In this document: piece after piece, positions 6,991 through 11,364 of the stretch
Layout of the letters: each line of letters begins with the position of its first letter
Position numbering within the stretch: position 1 is the stretch's first letter
DNA from: an uncultured Gammaproteobacteria bacterium
GTDB lineage: Bacteria; Pseudomonadota; Gammaproteobacteria; Pseudomonadales; Pseudohongiellaceae
Direction: 5' to 3'
Assembly: GCA_913060975.1 (NCBI GenBank)
Contig: CAJXVC010000006.1
Coordinates: 186,001-250,000, forward strand
DNA: 64,000 bases
Made by a program: the position numbers and the translations under genes
Notes under the pieces: model-generated
What the model was told of the DNA's origin: nothing
What the model saw: only the letters and a program-made list of their open reading frames with translations
Database searches by the model: none

Positions 6991-7135
6991 TCCGGGAGTG
7001 GTTGCTATGACGCATAGAAGTCTCGGTGACCACCCGTTAATTGGTTCAAGCTGACACAAAACTATTTGACAACACTACAAAGGCTGGCCTAAAGTTGCCG
7101 ACTTGCTCGCAGCCAGTAGGCGCCAAGCAGATCAG

Positions 7136-7248: not shown

Positions 7249-7359
7249 ATGCTATTAACGCAAAACAGTTCAGTATCTACTCAAGCAGTTGCCCAGGCGG
7301 CAGCGGCTCGTCGTGCTGCGCGTGCGCGTAGCAAATCTCCCGGAGAGCTGTGGTTGTAA
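7249..7359 (+). CDS. Arginine-rich leader peptide (probable attenuation peptide)
   Basis: A 36-codon open frame ends 26 bases before a strong terminator. The peptide is Ala-rich, with four arginine CGT codons at residues 21, 22, 25 and 27, and ends PGELWL. The last Arg codon (7327-7329) is 57 bases before the terminator stem, close to the spacing in amino-acid leader peptides such as TrpL. The codons after the Arg cluster (7341-7349) overlap a sequence able to pair with the terminator. The next gene but one is an acetylornithine-type aminotransferase. The weak point is the poor Shine-Dalgarno sequence before the ATG. Function is inferred from layout, not homology. Confidence 0.55.
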   Translation: MLLTQNSSVSTQAVAQAAAARRAARARSKSPGELWL

Positions 7360-7422
7360 CTGTCTAGTTTAAAACAGATTCGAAAAACCTCTAAGCGTCT
7401 CCGACCTTAGAGGTTTTTTTTT
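7341..7422 (+). terminator. Attenuator: intrinsic terminator with competing antiterminator pairing
   Basis: AACCTCTAAG (7386-7395) and CTTAGAGGTT (7406-7415) form a perfect 10-bp stem with a 10-base loop and run into nine T residues (7414-7422), a textbook intrinsic terminator. It ends only 17 bases before the GNAT ATG, leaving no room for another promoter, so the downstream genes need readthrough. An alternative helix is possible: CGGAGAGCT (7341-7349) can pair with AGC-g-TCTCCG (7394-7403), nine pairs around one bulged base, which would break the terminator. A ribosome stalled at the Arg codons would leave this segment free; one reaching the stop codon would cover it. Confidence 0.8.
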
Positions 7423-7439: not shown

Positions 7440-8243
7440 ATGGACATACATGCGATTGAATCCGCGGCCCAGCTTGCCTGGCCAGCCCTCATTGAACAGT
7501 CGGCCACGACGGGCGTACTGCGCTTCGCAGCGGGCGTTAGCCGACGTGCCAACTCAATGAATCCGTATCTGGATAAAGCGGTGGATTGTCGCGCCTTGTG
7601 CCAGGAAACAGAAGGCTTCTTTCAATCTCATCAACACCCGGTAATCGTCAAGGTGTTGGTGGCCAGGTCAGGAATGGTCTGTGACTTTCTGGCGCTGGAT
7701 GCACATCTTGATACTGCCGGTTACGGCAAAGAGGGCGACACCATCGTGATGGGTTTGCCGCTGCAGACGCTGGAAAACTCAGCAGGGGCCGATCCACGAA
7801 GAGCGGCGCACAGGAACTGGTGCCTGACCAGCGAAACTGCGAACGATTGGTCCCTGGCCTGGCACGAGGTCCGAGGCCTGCCGGAGACCCACCAATTGGT
7901 GCACAGCCAAATCGTTGCACGTATCGCAGCACCGCGGCAGTTGCTCTGCGTGCGTGACGCCAATGGCAAGGCCTTGGCCACCGGGTTCGCAGTTAATCAG
8001 TATGGCTGTCTGGGCATATTCGGGATGGCGACTCGCCTGGCGCACAGACGCATTGGATTGTCGCAGTTGCTCATACAACAACTGCTGCTCTGGGGTAAAG
8101 CGCAGGGCGCCGGTTTTGCCTATCTGCAGGTCGAAACGACCAATGCAGCAGCGCGCGCACTGTACGAAAAATCAGGATTCAGGAATGAGTATTCCTATTG
8201 GTATCGCGTGAAAAATTTCAACACACAAGGTGAATTATCATGA
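7440..8243 (+). CDS. GNAT-family N-acetyltransferase
   Basis: Predicted acetyl-CoA-dependent acetyltransferase of 267 residues. The C-terminal half (about 160-255) is the GNAT fold: YGCLGIFGMATRLAHRRIGLSQ resembles motif A with its acetyl-CoA loop, and QVETTNAAARALYEKSGF is the typical motif B. The N-terminal half (AWPALIEQSATTGVLRFAAG, then RRANSMNPY) resembles two-domain GNATs. GAGAGA, 8 bases upstream, can serve as ribosome site. The stop overlaps the argD-like start as ATGA, indicating coupling. Pairing with an acetylornithine-type aminotransferase suggests a role near N-acetylated amino acids, but the substrate is not shown by sequence. Confidence 0.8.
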   Translation: MDIHAIESAAQLAWPALIEQSATTGVLRFAAGVSRRANSMNPYLDKAVDCRALCQETEGFFQSHQHPVIVKVLVARSGMVCDFLALDAHLDTAGYGKEGDTIVMGLPLQTLENSAGADPRRAAHRNWCLTSETANDWSLAWHEVRGLPETHQLVHSQIVARIAAPRQLLCVRDANGKALATGFAVNQYGCLGIFGMATRLAHRRIGLSQLLIQQLLLWGKAQGAGFAYLQVETTNAAARALYEKSGFRNEYSYWYRVKNFNTQGELS

Positions 8244-9493
8244 ATGTGCAGGAGACAGAACAACAATTGGGTATTGGTTTTTGCAAGCGGCAACCACTAG
8301 TTGCCGAGCGTGGTGAGGGAGCGTTGGTGTGGGATGCTGCAGGTAAGAAATATCTGGATTTTACCTCGGGCTGGGGAGTGACCTGCCTTGGTCACGCGCA
8401 TCCGGTGATGCGTAATGCGCTGAGCGAGCAGGCCGCCAAACTCTGGCAAAACCCGAATTCCGGCTTTGCCTATTCTCCGGTGCGGGCGCAGTTGCTGGAA
8501 GAACTGCAGAACTGGTTGCCAGCGCCGGCGATGCGAACTTTCTTCGTTAACAGCGGCGCCGAAGCCAACGATGCCGCAATCAAGTTGGCACGCAAGATCA
8601 CGGGTCGTTGCGGCATCGTGTCAACCAGCGGCGGCTTTCATGGCCGGACATTCAATACTTTGACGGTGTCGGTCAATCAATCCAGCGCCGAGGGCTTCCT
8701 GCCTTTATTGCCACACAATCAGTTTGTGAGGTTTGGCGATCCAGGCGAGCTTGAGGCAGCGCTTGGTGCGGACACCGCTGCGCTCATTGTTGAGCCTATT
8801 CAGGGGGAAGGTGGCGTACAAATCCCTGCAGCCGACTATTTGGCACAGGCCAGGGCACTGTGTAAAGCCAACGGCACTTTGTTGATAATCGATGAAATTC
8901 AGACTGGCTTTTGCCGCACTGGCAAACCATTTGCCATGCAGCATGAAAATGCGCTGATAGAGCCAGATTTTCTGACCATGGCCAAGGGCATTGCTGGCGG
9001 TTTCCCGTTTGCTGCGTTGGCCGTATCAGCTGACGTGGCAAAGCAGATCAATGTCGGTGATCACGGCGGAACTTATTGCGGGAACCCTTTGGGGTGTGCA
9101 GTCGCGCTTGCAGTACTGCGCTATCTGCGTGCCCACAATGTCGCGGCCAGTGTCGCCGAAAAGGGGAAGTGGTTGGGAGCTGCACTTACCGAACTGCAGC
9201 AAGAGTTTCCCCAACTAATCGTTCAGGTACGTGGCCGTGGGCTTATTTGGGCCTTGCAACTGGCAGACGATGACATGGTTCAACGGCTAACGGTTGCGAG
9301 CATGGCGAGCGGTTTGCTGGTAACGCCAACACGCAATGGTATTGTGCGTATATTGCCCTCGCTTTTGATGAGCGACGACGAGCTTGAACTGGGCGTTGCT
9401 CTGTTGCGCAAGGCGTTTTCCAGGGCCTCGGTAGCTGTGCCCTCCGACAATAATACGTTAGACTGCGGGGCAAATGAATTGCAAATAAACTGA
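8240..9493 (+). CDS. argD: Class III aminotransferase, acetylornithine type
   Basis: PLP-dependent transaminase of 417 residues, related to acetylornithine/succinyldiaminopimelate aminotransferases of arginine and lysine synthesis. Visible family elements: LDFTSGWGVTCLGHAHP near residue 35; NSGAEANDAAIKLAR near 100; SGGFHGRTFNTLTV near 133; the EPIQGEGGV motif; the cofactor aspartate in IIDEIQTGFCRTG; and the Schiff-base lysine K249 in TMAKGIAGG. Its ATG overlaps the GNAT stop, and the operon continues into oxidoreductase genes. The symbol is by family; another class III substrate, as in a catabolic paralogue, cannot be excluded. Confidence 0.8.
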   Translation: MNVQETEQQLGIGFCKRQPLVAERGEGALVWDAAGKKYLDFTSGWGVTCLGHAHPVMRNALSEQAAKLWQNPNSGFAYSPVRAQLLEELQNWLPAPAMRTFFVNSGAEANDAAIKLARKITGRCGIVSTSGGFHGRTFNTLTVSVNQSSAEGFLPLLPHNQFVRFGDPGELEAALGADTAALIVEPIQGEGGVQIPAADYLAQARALCKANGTLLIIDEIQTGFCRTGKPFAMQHENALIEPDFLTMAKGIAGGFPFAALAVSADVAKQINVGDHGGTYCGNPLGCAVALAVLRYLRAHNVAASVAEKGKWLGAALTELQQEFPQLIVQVRGRGLIWALQLADDDMVQRLTVASMASGLLVTPTRNGIVRILPSLLMSDDELELGVALLRKAFSRASVAVPSDNNTLDCGANELQIN

Positions 9494-9505: not shown

Positions 9506-10531
9506 ATGATTAAGAACACGCGTGTTATTTTTGCTCAGCGTCCGGTGGGGGAACCGGGTGATGATTGCTTCCGTCTTGAACAGTGCGACGTGCCTGAACT
9601 GGCCGAGAACGAAATACTGATCAAGGTGTGCTGGCTGTCACTGGACCCCTACATGCGTGGCCGAATGAATGATGTGAAATCCTATGCAGCACCGATGGAA
9701 GTCGGTGATGTCATGATTGGGGAATCAGCAGGGATTGTGCTGAAATCGCGTTCTGACAAATTCCAGGTCGGAGACCGCGTCACCGCGCATCGCGGCTGGC
9801 AAAGCTATGTGATATCTCGTGACGATGATCCTCGTCTGATGAAAGTAGATACCGACAATGGCACTCTGTCTGCGCATCTGGGTGTGGTCGGGATGCCGGG
9901 CCGTACGGCTTATTTTGGCTTGACTGAAGTCGGTAAACCCAAAGAAGGCGAAACTCTGGTAGTCGCCGCAGCCTCTGGCGCAGTGGGCTCAGTCGTTGGC
10001 CAGATTGCCAGACTGAAAGGGTTGCGGGTCGTCGGTATTGCCGGCGGTGCCAAGAAATGTCGCTTTGTGAAAGAAGAACTGCATTTCGATGCCTGTATCG
10101 ATTACAAGGCAGGCAATCTGGCCAACGAGCTGGCAGCAGCCTGCCCCAACGGTATTGATGTTTATTTTGAAAATGTCGGCGGTGAAGTTATGCGCGCCGT
10201 AGCGCCTTTGTTAAACCCCGGTGCTCGTGTGCCTATTTGTGGTTATGTTTCCCAGTACAATGCTGAGGACATTACCAAGGCAGAAACACCATTCGATATC
10301 TTGCAAAAACTCGATCCGCTACCGGAGCATCGTTTCTTTGTGGTAACCGAATGGATGGATCGTTGGGTAGAGGCCACCCGTTTGCTAGGCAACTGGGTTA
10401 GCGAAGGCAGAATCCATTACCGGGAAAGCATTGGCGAAGGTCTGGATAACGCACCCGAATTATTTCGCGGTATGTTAAAGGGCAAGAATTTTGGCAAACA
10501 ACTGGTCAAAATTGCAGACGAAGAGCTGTGA
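9506..10531 (+). CDS. NADP-dependent oxidoreductase, CurA/leukotriene B4 dehydrogenase-like MDR
   Basis: Zinc-free medium-chain reductase of 341 residues that typically reduces carbon-carbon double bonds of enones. The N-terminal GroES-like domain holds LSLDPYMRGRMND near residue 45; the Rossmann domain has VVAAASGAVGSVVGQIA near 150-167, and DVYFENVGGEVMRA and GYVSQYNA follow, as in curcumin/prostaglandin reductases. AGGA lies 9 bases before the ATG. The gap to the argD-like stop is only 12 bases, and the next SDR start overlaps its stop as GTGA, so it sits inside the attenuated operon. The substrate is unknown. Confidence 0.85.
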   Translation: MIKNTRVIFAQRPVGEPGDDCFRLEQCDVPELAENEILIKVCWLSLDPYMRGRMNDVKSYAAPMEVGDVMIGESAGIVLKSRSDKFQVGDRVTAHRGWQSYVISRDDDPRLMKVDTDNGTLSAHLGVVGMPGRTAYFGLTEVGKPKEGETLVVAAASGAVGSVVGQIARLKGLRVVGIAGGAKKCRFVKEELHFDACIDYKAGNLANELAAACPNGIDVYFENVGGEVMRAVAPLLNPGARVPICGYVSQYNAEDITKAETPFDILQKLDPLPEHRFFVVTEWMDRWVEATRLLGNWVSEGRIHYRESIGEGLDNAPELFRGMLKGKNFGKQLVKIADEEL

Positions 10532-11364
10532 GCAATACCCTCGACTACAGTGTAGGCAGGCTGTTTTCGCTGGAGGGCAAGACGGCATTGGTCACAGGTG
10601 GTTCCAGCGGCATCGGTCTGATGATCGCCAAGGGGCTGTTGCAGAATGGTGCCAAAGTCGTGATTGCCTCGCGCAAACAAGACAAGTGTGACCTGGCGCT
10701 AGCCGAGTTGTCTCCTTTCGGTGATTGCATGGCTATAGTTGCTGACGTTACGAGTGGTGAGTCCAGGCAGCAATTGTTGGAACAGGTGGCCGCCAGACTG
10801 GGCACTCTCAATTTGCTGGTGAATAACGCCGGAGCAAATTGGGGGGCGCCATTACATGAGTATCCTGACGAAGGCTTTGCCAAGGTCGTAGACACTAATC
10901 TCAATGCCGTCTTTTCATTAACCAGAGACGCGGTACCGCTGCTTGAAATGGCCGCGACCGAGTCTGACCCTGCTCGCATTATAAATATTGGTTCGATGGA
11001 TGGTTTGCATGTGCCAATCGTCCAGCGTGTACCGACATTTGCCTATACCGCCAGCAAGGCAGCGTTGCATCATTTGACGCGCTGTCTGGCTGTGGAATTG
11101 GGCCCCAGACACATTACAGTCAATGCCGTAGCCCCCGGCTTTTTCGAATCGAGAATGACCGATTATGTATTGGGTGAATTTCGCGCTGACATTGAAGACG
11201 ATTGCCCACTGGGGCGTGTGGGTGAACCGGAGGAGATGGTCGGGATTGTTGCTTATCTGGCGTCACGTGCCGGGGCCTATACTACCGGGACTGTAATTCC
11301 GGTCGATGGTGGCACGAATATAGCCAAAGGCAAGCGAGCCTGGATGGACGAAGAGCAAGGCTGA
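10528..11364 (+). CDS. Short-chain dehydrogenase/reductase
   Basis: NAD(P)-dependent SDR of 278 residues. Cofactor motif TGGSSGIG at 23-30, NNAGA at 99-103, and catalytic S156, Y173 and K177 (YTASK), then an APGFFESRM loop and the C-terminal PVDGG. The RhlG/gluconate dehydrogenase-like layout fits an oxo-acyl or sugar alcohol substrate; sequence does not settle which. It starts at GTG overlapping the stop of the preceding reductase by four bases, so translation is coupled. A 112-base gap separates it from the next SDR. Confidence 0.85.
   Translation: MSNTLDYSVGRLFSLEGKTALVTGGSSGIGLMIAKGLLQNGAKVVIASRKQDKCDLALAELSPFGDCMAIVADVTSGESRQQLLEQVAARLGTLNLLVNNAGANWGAPLHEYPDEGFAKVVDTNLNAVFSLTRDAVPLLEMAATESDPARIINIGSMDGLHVPIVQRVPTFAYTASKAALHHLTRCLAVELGPRHITVNAVAPGFFESRMTDYVLGEFRADIEDDCPLGRVGEPEEMVGIVAYLASRAGAYTTGTVIPVDGGTNIAKGKRAWMDEEQG

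What the first reader, a model, noticed from the sequence alone, without database searches (positions are those of the whole stretch)
7249..7422. Probable arginine-responsive transcription attenuator ahead of an ArgD-like operon
Seen in sequence: a 36-codon frame with four CGT arginine codons, a strong terminator 26 bases after its stop, and the next gene beginning 17 bases after the terminator. CGGAGAGCT (7341-7349) can pair with AGC-g-TCTCCG (7394-7403), which would disrupt the terminator. The last Arg codon lies 57 bases before the terminator, like Trp codons in the trp leader. The operon contains a GNAT and an acetylornithine-type aminotransferase. Inference: stalling at Arg codons would favour antitermination. 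The leader's ribosome site is weak and Ala codons are even more frequent, so alanine or chance is not excluded.
Basis: partly seen in the sequence, partly recalled or inferred. Interest (0 to 1): 0.72.

Follow-up and report, generated by a model that had tools for sequence, protein, structure and literature searches.

The report
Arginine-sensing leader-peptide transcription attenuator
A short, arginine-rich leader gene followed by a switchable transcription terminator sits in front of arginine-making genes in a family of environmental bacteria, and its conservation in dozens of relatives makes it very likely that it turns those genes on when arginine runs short.

Summary
The downstream GNAT gene has a match in 37 of 84 genomes of the genus; I read 33 upstream, and all 33 carry the same anatomy: sigma-70-like promoter, ATG leader of 30-49 codons, Arg-codon cluster (usually RRxxR) and terminator. 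In 32 aligned, the three core positions are Arg in 31, 31 and 32 rows, varying almost only synonymously, while neighbouring Ala codons change. The antiterminator strand (GGAG; GAAG once) lies in all three frames relative to the leader, always 14-19 nt before its stop. Terminator and antiterminator covary. Of 22 loci read outside the genus, 20 (five genera, two families) have an Arg-rich leader and terminator ahead of an ArgD-like gene; one is masked, one is an exception. E. coli-type ArgR was not found in the genus (0 of 84) or family sample (0 of 99). Best explanation: ribosome-mediated attenuation sensing charged tRNA-Arg. The off state is probably a ribosome at the leader stop masking GGAG; the 1:2 helix looks weak. 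My paper searches found no arginine-biosynthesis attenuator of this kind.

The parts
7066..7095 (+). sigma-70-like promoter TTGACA-N18-TAAAGT
   Evidence: not above shuffles in the window alone; a site scoring at least 9 of 12 ahead of the leader in 33 of 33 same-genus loci (no control run); function inferred
7249..7359 (+). leader peptide gene, 36 codons, MLLTQNSSVSTQAVAQAAAARRAARARSKSPGELWL*
   Evidence: sequence; ATG-started leader of 30-49 aa in 33 of 33 loci
7309..7329 (+). regulatory Arg codons (CGT CGT GCT GCG CGT GCG CGT)
   Evidence: Arg at the three core positions in 31, 31 and 32 of 32 aligned loci, with synonymous variation
7301..7313 (+). segment 1: can pair with segment 2 (anti-antiterminator), weak
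   Evidence: 82.3% of cells paired; covariation score above all 500 shuffles, but slid versions equal it on double changes; loses to 2:3 at equilibrium
7341..7349 (+). segment 2, CGGAGAGCT: upstream strand of the antiterminator, inside the end of the leader frame
   Evidence: covarying pairs with 7394-7403; in all three frames, 14-19 nt before the stop in 32 of 32
7350..7357 (+). GTGGTTGT: possible inner antiterminator strand, pairs with 7384-7391
   Evidence: 85.7% of cells paired but no covariation beyond shuffles
7394..7403 (+). segment 3, AGCGTCTCCG: end of terminator 5' arm plus loop, pairs with segment 2
7383..7422 (+). intrinsic terminator (13-bp stem, 10-base loop, T-run)
   Evidence: 94.2% of cells paired, 3 pairs with double changes; about -20 kcal/mol
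7440..8243 (+). GNAT acetyltransferase, probable N-acetylglutamate synthase of CG3035/Rv0428c type
   Evidence: Pfam Rv0428c_C above cut-off; NCBIfam NF049894 E 1.7e-24 but below its cut-off; 15 of 15 aligned relatives match the same model
8240..9493 (+). second ArgD-like class III aminotransferase
   Evidence: TIGR00707 366.7 bits, cut-off 410; a canonical ArgD lies elsewhere in the genome

Best explanation
A classical leader-peptide (ribosome-mediated) transcription attenuator that senses charged tRNA-Arg. RNA polymerase starts at the promoter 7066-7095 and a ribosome translates the 36-codon leader. With enough arginine, the ribosome runs to the stop at 7357 and covers GGAG (7341-7349), so segment 3 is free to form the terminator and transcription stops before the N-acetylglutamate-synthase-like and ArgD-like genes. 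With scarce arginine, the ribosome stalls at the CGT codons (7309-7329). Its leading edge then falls short of GGAG, segment 2 pairs with segment 3, the terminator cannot form and the operon is transcribed. Shown by comparison: the leader, the conserved Arg codons, the two mutually exclusive helices and the stop position. Inferred: ribosome stalling, the response to arginine, and the enzymes' roles. Uncertain: what happens when the leader is not translated at all.
For: Same promoter, leader, Arg cluster and terminator in 33 of 33 same-genus loci read. Core Arg positions 31/32, 31/32 and 32/32. At Arg codons 4 and 8 all 380 differing sequence pairs are synonymous; at codon 5, 208 synonymous and 29 not (30 of 32 rows used); the other two frames show almost no synonymous change. 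GGAG (GAAG in L039) sits in all three frames but always 14-19 nt before the stop, and 17-24 nt from the first base of the third core Arg codon. Terminator and antiterminator covary. A ribosome mask at the stop drops predicted antiterminator pairing to a mean of 0.01, against 0.92-0.93 for masks at the Arg codons. Leader and terminator ahead of an ArgD-like gene in 20 of 22 loci read outside the genus. The element sits ahead of GNAT+ArgD-like (23 of 33) or GNAT without it (10 of 33) in the genus (window), and ahead of ArgD-like alone in other genera. No E. coli-type ArgR: 0 of 84, 0 of 99.
Against: No expression data. At equilibrium the antiterminator already forms in untranslated RNA (mean 0.85), and a mask at codons 1-3 gives 0.85-0.92, so the folding model does not single out the Arg codons; it singles out the stop. 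In L034, L040 and L045 the modelled pairing is low even with a ribosome at the Arg codons; in L045 a shifted register forms. On the count of pairs with double changes, 2, 34 and 26 of 500 shuffles reach the observed value for terminator, antiterminator and 1:2 helix. Weak Shine-Dalgarno. One relative (G469) keeps a terminator ahead of GNAT but shows no Arg cluster in the roughly 100 nt readable upstream. A canonical ArgA and ArgD exist elsewhere in the same genome. 47 of 84 genomes of the genus have no GNAT match and 50 no model match, so the switch is not universal there.
Confidence: 0.88

Rival explanations
1. The leader senses alanine, not arginine.
For: Ala codons outnumber Arg codons in the window's leader and are common in relatives.
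Against: Ala positions vary to Val, Ile, Ser, Gly, Leu, Pro, Thr, Asp, Glu and Arg and carry 57-218 non-synonymous differing pairs each, against 0, 29 and 0 at the Arg positions. L034 reads SGTRRGSRE, with no Ala in the aligned nine codons. Downstream genes are arginine-type. The Ala codons' GC-rich bases could be explained by 1:2 pairing.
Confidence: 0.02
2. The nascent peptide itself, or free arginine or ornithine, arrests the ribosome, as in the speF leader or the fungal arginine attenuator peptide (the latter recalled), rather than shortage of charged tRNA-Arg.
For: An Arg-rich leader with conserved Arg residues; the speF leader orf34 also has two consecutive Arg codons (PMC6386406 passages).
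Against: The peptide after the Arg cluster is not conserved and is read in three frames (GELWF, ESCGFN, PESRGFI, SRSAVS), so there is no conserved arrest sequence near the stop; only Arg and the stop position are kept.
Confidence: 0.07
3. A regulatory protein or trans-RNA binds the GGAG/terminator region and the Arg-rich frame is incidental.
For: GGAG and the loop are conserved at the nucleotide level.
Against: Synonymous-only conservation of Arg and a fixed GGAG-to-stop distance across frame changes point to translation. In other genera the pairing sequences differ but the arrangement is kept.
Confidence: 0.02
4. An ordinary terminator or a stand-alone small RNA with chance complementarity; no regulation of the downstream genes.
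For: Rfam gives only weak matches to unrelated models.
Against: The element lies ahead of GNAT and/or ArgD-like genes in 33 same-genus loci and 20 others; in G008 both the leader and the GNAT look degenerate.
Confidence: 0.01

Closest known systems
trp/his/leu/ilv/phe/thr leader-peptide attenuators
   Same: Short leader with regulatory codons, stop near the antiterminator strand, mutually exclusive antiterminator and terminator, biosynthetic genes downstream.
   Different: Regulatory codons are Arg; 1:2 helix weak at equilibrium; no Rfam model reaches its gathering score. The list of known systems is recalled and partly appears in passages of PMC1262725, PMC2965389 and PMC2659441.
speF leader orf34 of Salmonella (PMC6386406; abstract and passages seen)
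   Same: Ribosome pausing at consecutive Arg codons in a short upstream frame changes mRNA folding under low arginine.
   Different: There it works through Rho, RNase G and RBS access for ornithine decarboxylase, with a conserved peptide core; here an intrinsic terminator ahead of arginine-synthesis-type genes and no conserved peptide beyond the Arg region.
carAB leader of Pseudomonas (PMC4997734; passages seen)
   Same: Attenuation, with a leader peptide in P. aeruginosa, ahead of a gene shared by arginine and pyrimidine synthesis.
   Different: The attenuation is described there as pyrimidine-controlled, and arginine acts at the transcriptional level.
Arginine T-boxes
   Same: T-boxes are named for arginine genes in other species (a passage of PMC1262725); that they sense tRNA charging is recalled.
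   Different: They bind tRNA directly and need no leader peptide (recalled); no T-box match in the window.
A Val-rich leader before a gene that looks by eye like acetolactate synthase in G612
   Same: Found by the same covariance model in another order, with leader and terminator.
   Different: Codons are Val; it looks like an ordinary ilv attenuator and serves as an unplanned positive control.

Membership tests
Ribosome-mediated (leader-peptide) transcription attenuator | Short translatable leader ORF with clustered codons of one amino acid | tested here: met
   33 of 33 loci have an ATG leader of 30-49 aa; Arg positions conserved, variation almost only synonymous. Translation itself not tested
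Ribosome-mediated (leader-peptide) transcription attenuator | Intrinsic terminator between leader and first gene | tested here: met
Ribosome-mediated (leader-peptide) transcription attenuator | Antiterminator mutually exclusive with the terminator | tested here: met
   32 of 32, counted; in other genera 16 of 18 with at least 8 such pairs (no shuffle control), the other two with a longer stretch; L228 and L230 not folded
Ribosome-mediated (leader-peptide) transcription attenuator | Ribosome at the stop masks the antiterminator; ribosome at the regulatory codons does not | tested here: met
   geometry: GGAG 14-19 nt before the stop, 17-24 nt from the first base of the third core Arg codon; masks in folding. 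Model only, and masks further upstream leave it free too
Ribosome-mediated (leader-peptide) transcription attenuator | Anti-antiterminator (1:2) so that the untranslated leader terminates | tested here: inconclusive
   1:2 helix 82.3% paired, mixed covariation controls, and antiterminator still 0.85 in naked RNA at equilibrium
Ribosome-mediated (leader-peptide) transcription attenuator | Regulated genes make the sensed amino acid | tested here: met
   ArgD-like and N-acetylglutamate-synthase-like genes by sequence; enzyme activity not tested
Ribosome-mediated (leader-peptide) transcription attenuator | Readthrough rises when the amino acid is limiting | not testable with these tools
   needs reporter or RNA-seq data
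CG3035-type N-acetylglutamate synthase (NF049894), for the GNAT | Score above the curated cut-off | tested here: not met
   86.6 bits against a cut-off of 280; so a relative, not filed as a member
TIGR00707 ArgD, for the aminotransferase | Score above the curated cut-off of 410 | tested here: not met
   366.7 bits; ArgD-like paralog. The other copy in the genome passes with 448.3
Rfam leader, T-box and riboswitch families | Match at gathering score | tested here: not met
   0 matches in the window; weak Phe_leader 15.8 bits against 55
speF/orf34 leader | Conserved HIRRT peptide core | tested here: not met
   by eye: leaders read mostly AARRxxRA with variable tails; motif taken from a passage of PMC6386406

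The most novel reading that the evidence does not exclude
In this family (probably Pseudohongiellaceae), which lacks an E. coli-type ArgR, arginine-responsive leader-peptide attenuation took over control of early arginine synthesis. The switch travelled with, and was rebuilt in different base-pairing sequences around, a dedicated second ArgD and/or a replacement N-acetylglutamate synthase. It would be the first documented arginine member of the classical attenuators.
Probability: 0.6. Interest if true: 0.68.

Novelty: new variant of a known kind. Interest (0 to 1): 0.62.

Why it matters
Leader-peptide attenuators are textbook for Trp, His, Leu, Ile/Val, Thr and Phe, while arginine genes are usually described as controlled by ArgR or T-boxes (recalled). 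An arginine member, seen in five genera of a family in which no E. coli-type ArgR was found in 99 genomes sampled, and in one genome of another family (ArgR not tested there), would fill a gap, suggest how regulation is rewired where that repressor is missing, and provide a compact Arg sensor. The drift of the antiterminator strand through three reading frames against fixed Arg codons is also unusually clean comparative evidence that ribosome position, not peptide sequence, is what selection keeps.

Tried and rejected
Alanine sensing: rejected on codon variation. Peptide-arrest model: disfavoured because the tail is read in three frames. A second mini-ORF starting at GTG/TTG/ATG just after GGAG, with GGAG as its Shine-Dalgarno, was noticed by eye but not tested; the same bases could serve the inner antiterminator helix, which itself shows no covariation. 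More copies in the same genome: the only second model hit in G000 (E 5e-4, terminator half only) shows no Arg leader; weak second hits in G081, G003, G100, G012 and G097 were read and rejected too; those in G059, G035 and G031 were not read. PDB sequence search of the GNAT alignment gave only general GNAT domains among the 60 rows shown of 125. The order-wide model search gave 37 of 390 genomes at E <= 0.001, two of them of this genus. I read 17 of the full-length hits: five lie ahead of ArgD-like genes (L158, L160, L163, L164, L165) and were accepted; four precede a transporter (see noticed); the rest looked by eye like tRNA or rRNA ends or gene ends.

Rows dropped: L037 was left out of alignment A1 by oversight; it conforms. 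L019 and L034 were left out of the synonymous/non-synonymous count (shifted frame, N). Four of 37 GNAT-match genomes (G069, G089, G087, G025) were not examined upstream (contig end or short weak matches). Outside the genus only 22 ArgD-like loci were read; further matches listed were not fetched.

Full report
OBSERVATION. The region folds better than all but 1 of 200 shuffles. Rfam has no match at gathering score in the window.

GENES. The gene at 7440-8243 is a GNAT acetyltransferase. It passes the Pfam cut-off for Rv0428c_C and matches the CG3035 N-acetylglutamate synthase model at E 1.7e-24, but below its curated cut-off (86.6 against 280 bits); all 15 members of the GNAT alignment match the same model. 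The gene at 8240-9493 is ArgD-like (366.7 bits, cut-off 410). The genome has a canonical ArgD elsewhere (448.3 bits), a canonical ArgA and ArgJ. So the operon is a second set of early arginine genes rather than the only one.

ORGANISM. The same-genus contigs recovered with titles are metagenome-assembled genomes labelled Gammaproteobacteria, Pseudomonadales or Proteobacteria, one Pseudohongiella and two 'SAR86 cluster'. The family name Pseudohongiellaceae is my inference.

SAME-GENUS CONSERVATION. The GNAT protein has a match in 37 of 84 genomes of the genus, the window's own included. I read 33 of these upstream (30 loci plus three fetched); four were not read (G069, G089, G087, G025). All 33 have a sigma-70-like promoter scoring at least 9 of 12 (no control run), an ATG-started leader of 30-49 codons, an Arg cluster and the terminator. 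The ATG lies 20-23 codons before the Arg cluster in 27 of 33. 32 of the 33 were aligned (A1); L037 was omitted by oversight. A covariance model from A1 matches 34 of 84 genomes: the 32 that built it, G098 (L037) and G008, where the leader looks decayed. The other 50 genomes have no model match, so the switch is not universal in the genus.

CODONS. In A1 the three core Arg positions are Arg in 31, 31 and 32 of 32 rows; L019 and L041 each carry one Cys. Among 30 rows compared pairwise, codons 4 and 8 differ only synonymously (204 and 176 pairs, 0 non-synonymous), and codon 5 has 208 synonymous and 29 non-synonymous pairs, as many as one deviating row gives. The Ala codons 1, 2, 3, 6, 7 and 9 have 57 to 218 non-synonymous pairs. 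Over the nine codons the leader frame has 1476 synonymous and 754 non-synonymous pairs; the two other frames 136 against 1920 and 116 against 1800. Pairs count sequences, not events, but the pattern is that of selection on Arg codons in the leader frame.

FRAME DRIFT. The antiterminator strand GGAG (GAAG in L039, where the partner still pairs) is conserved as nucleotides but lies in all three frames relative to the Arg cluster, so the peptides end in GELWF, ESCGFN, PESRGFI, SRSAVS and the like. Yet the leader's stop always falls 14-19 nt after the start of GGAG, and GGAG starts 17-24 nt from the first base of the third core Arg codon. A ribosome at the stop would cover GGAG; one stalled at the Arg codons should not.

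STRUCTURE. Terminator: 94.2% of cells paired, 3 pairs with double changes. Antiterminator: 82.5%, 5 pairs. 1:2 helix: 82.3%, 4 pairs. For all three no shuffle of 500 reaches the covariation score, but on pairs with double changes 2, 34 and 26 of 500 shuffles do, and slid versions of the 1:2 helix equal it on double changes; the tool warns that relatedness inflates the shuffle control. The inner GGUUUU/AAAACC helix is 85.7% paired without covariation. Folding with a ribosome mask gives mean antiterminator probability 0.85 with no ribosome, 0.92-0.93 with the A site at the Arg codons, 0.85-0.92 at codons 1-3 before them, and 0.01 at the stop. So in this equilibrium model the stop-codon ribosome is the 'off' switch, any ribosome further upstream leaves the antiterminator free, and the 1:2 helix is too weak to enforce termination of untranslated RNA. 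Kinetics were not modelled, and with the 3' arm present the full-length fold is more stable in every row. L034, L040 and L045 give low values even with a ribosome at the Arg codons.

BEYOND THE GENUS. I read 22 loci upstream of the ArgD-like gene in other genera. Twenty have an Ala/Arg-rich leader and a terminator: 18, and L228 and L230, read by eye. They come from four other genera of the family plus one genome of another family (G301). L213 is masked. L190 (G469) has the GNAT and a terminator but no Arg cluster in the roughly 100 nt before the contig end; this is an exception or a lost leader. The pairing sequences differ between genera; 16 of the 18 form at least 8 such pairs, without a shuffle control, and the other two (L191, L207) do so when a longer stretch is folded. 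The script picked a wrong frame for many of these loci and was replaced. The ArgD-like paralog at E <= 1e-100 occurs in 9 of 293 genomes of the order: eight of this family, the own genome included, and G301. The model finds one further match at E <= 1e-5 among 369 genomes of the class; it is a Val-rich leader before a gene that looks by eye like acetolactate synthase.

GENE CONTEXT. In 23 of 33 same-genus loci the ArgD-like gene follows the GNAT (22 and the window); in 10 it was not found there. Of those ten, seven lack an ArgA match over the cut-off (G012, G090, G078, G081, G004, G031, G062), against one of the 23 (G017) (Fisher p 2e-4, not corrected for relatedness). Only G012 and G090 of the seven are at least 90% complete. 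This suggests, but does not prove, that the GNAT can replace ArgA. The E. coli-type ArgR was not found: 0 of 84 genomes of the genus (controls 9 of 14) and 0 of 99 of the family for its C-terminal domain (controls 8 of 14). The unrelated AraC-type ArgR known from Pseudomonas (recalled) was not tested.

MECHANISM. Best supported: ribosome-mediated attenuation sensing tRNA-Arg charging. Shown comparatively: leader, codons, helices, geometry. Inferred: stalling, regulation by arginine, enzyme roles.

LITERATURE. Nine full-text searches listed no paper that I recognised as describing a bacterial leader-peptide transcription attenuator for arginine synthesis; the library lacks most subscription papers, so an earlier description cannot be excluded. 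Closest: the speF orf34 leader (PMC6386406, abstract and passages) and the pyrimidine-type carAB leader of Pseudomonas (PMC4997734, passages). A survey of Actinobacteria reports no conserved RNA structure ahead of arginine operons there and names T-boxes for arginine elsewhere (PMC1262725, passages). Of PMC2965389, PMC2659441, PMC8632094 and PMC7815308 I saw only passages found by term.

VERDICT. Real, conserved, and a new amino-acid specificity of a known kind of switch.

Noticed in passing
L159, L162, L170, L183 (family f40): Leader-plus-terminator elements also precede an ORF that looks by eye like a major-facilitator transporter; in L170 GGAGACG can pair with CGTCTCC of the terminator loop. 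The leaders lack an RRxxR cluster, so the signal is unknown.
   Followed up: partly
window 9506-11364: An NADPH-dependent reductase and an SDR gene follow within a few bases of the ArgD-like gene; relatives without the ArgD-like gene mostly still have them after the GNAT, so they may share the attenuated transcript.
   Followed up: partly
window 7341-7375 and A1 columns 46-75: GGAG is followed by a GTG, TTG or ATG and a very short frame in the relatives read by eye; it could be a second mini-ORF or a by-product of antiterminator pairing.
   Followed up: no
G000:C3:52702-53934 and window 8240-9493: Two ArgD-family aminotransferases, 37% identical over the match, coexist in this genome; many family members show the same pair.
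   Followed up: partly
L225 (G008): A leader that looks decayed sits ahead of a GNAT remnant, as if both were being lost together.
   Followed up: partly
L046 (G035) and L047 (G066): The GNAT match is split into two pieces in both genomes (with stops in one piece in G035), although the attenuator is intact; broken gene or assembly error not decided.
   Followed up: no
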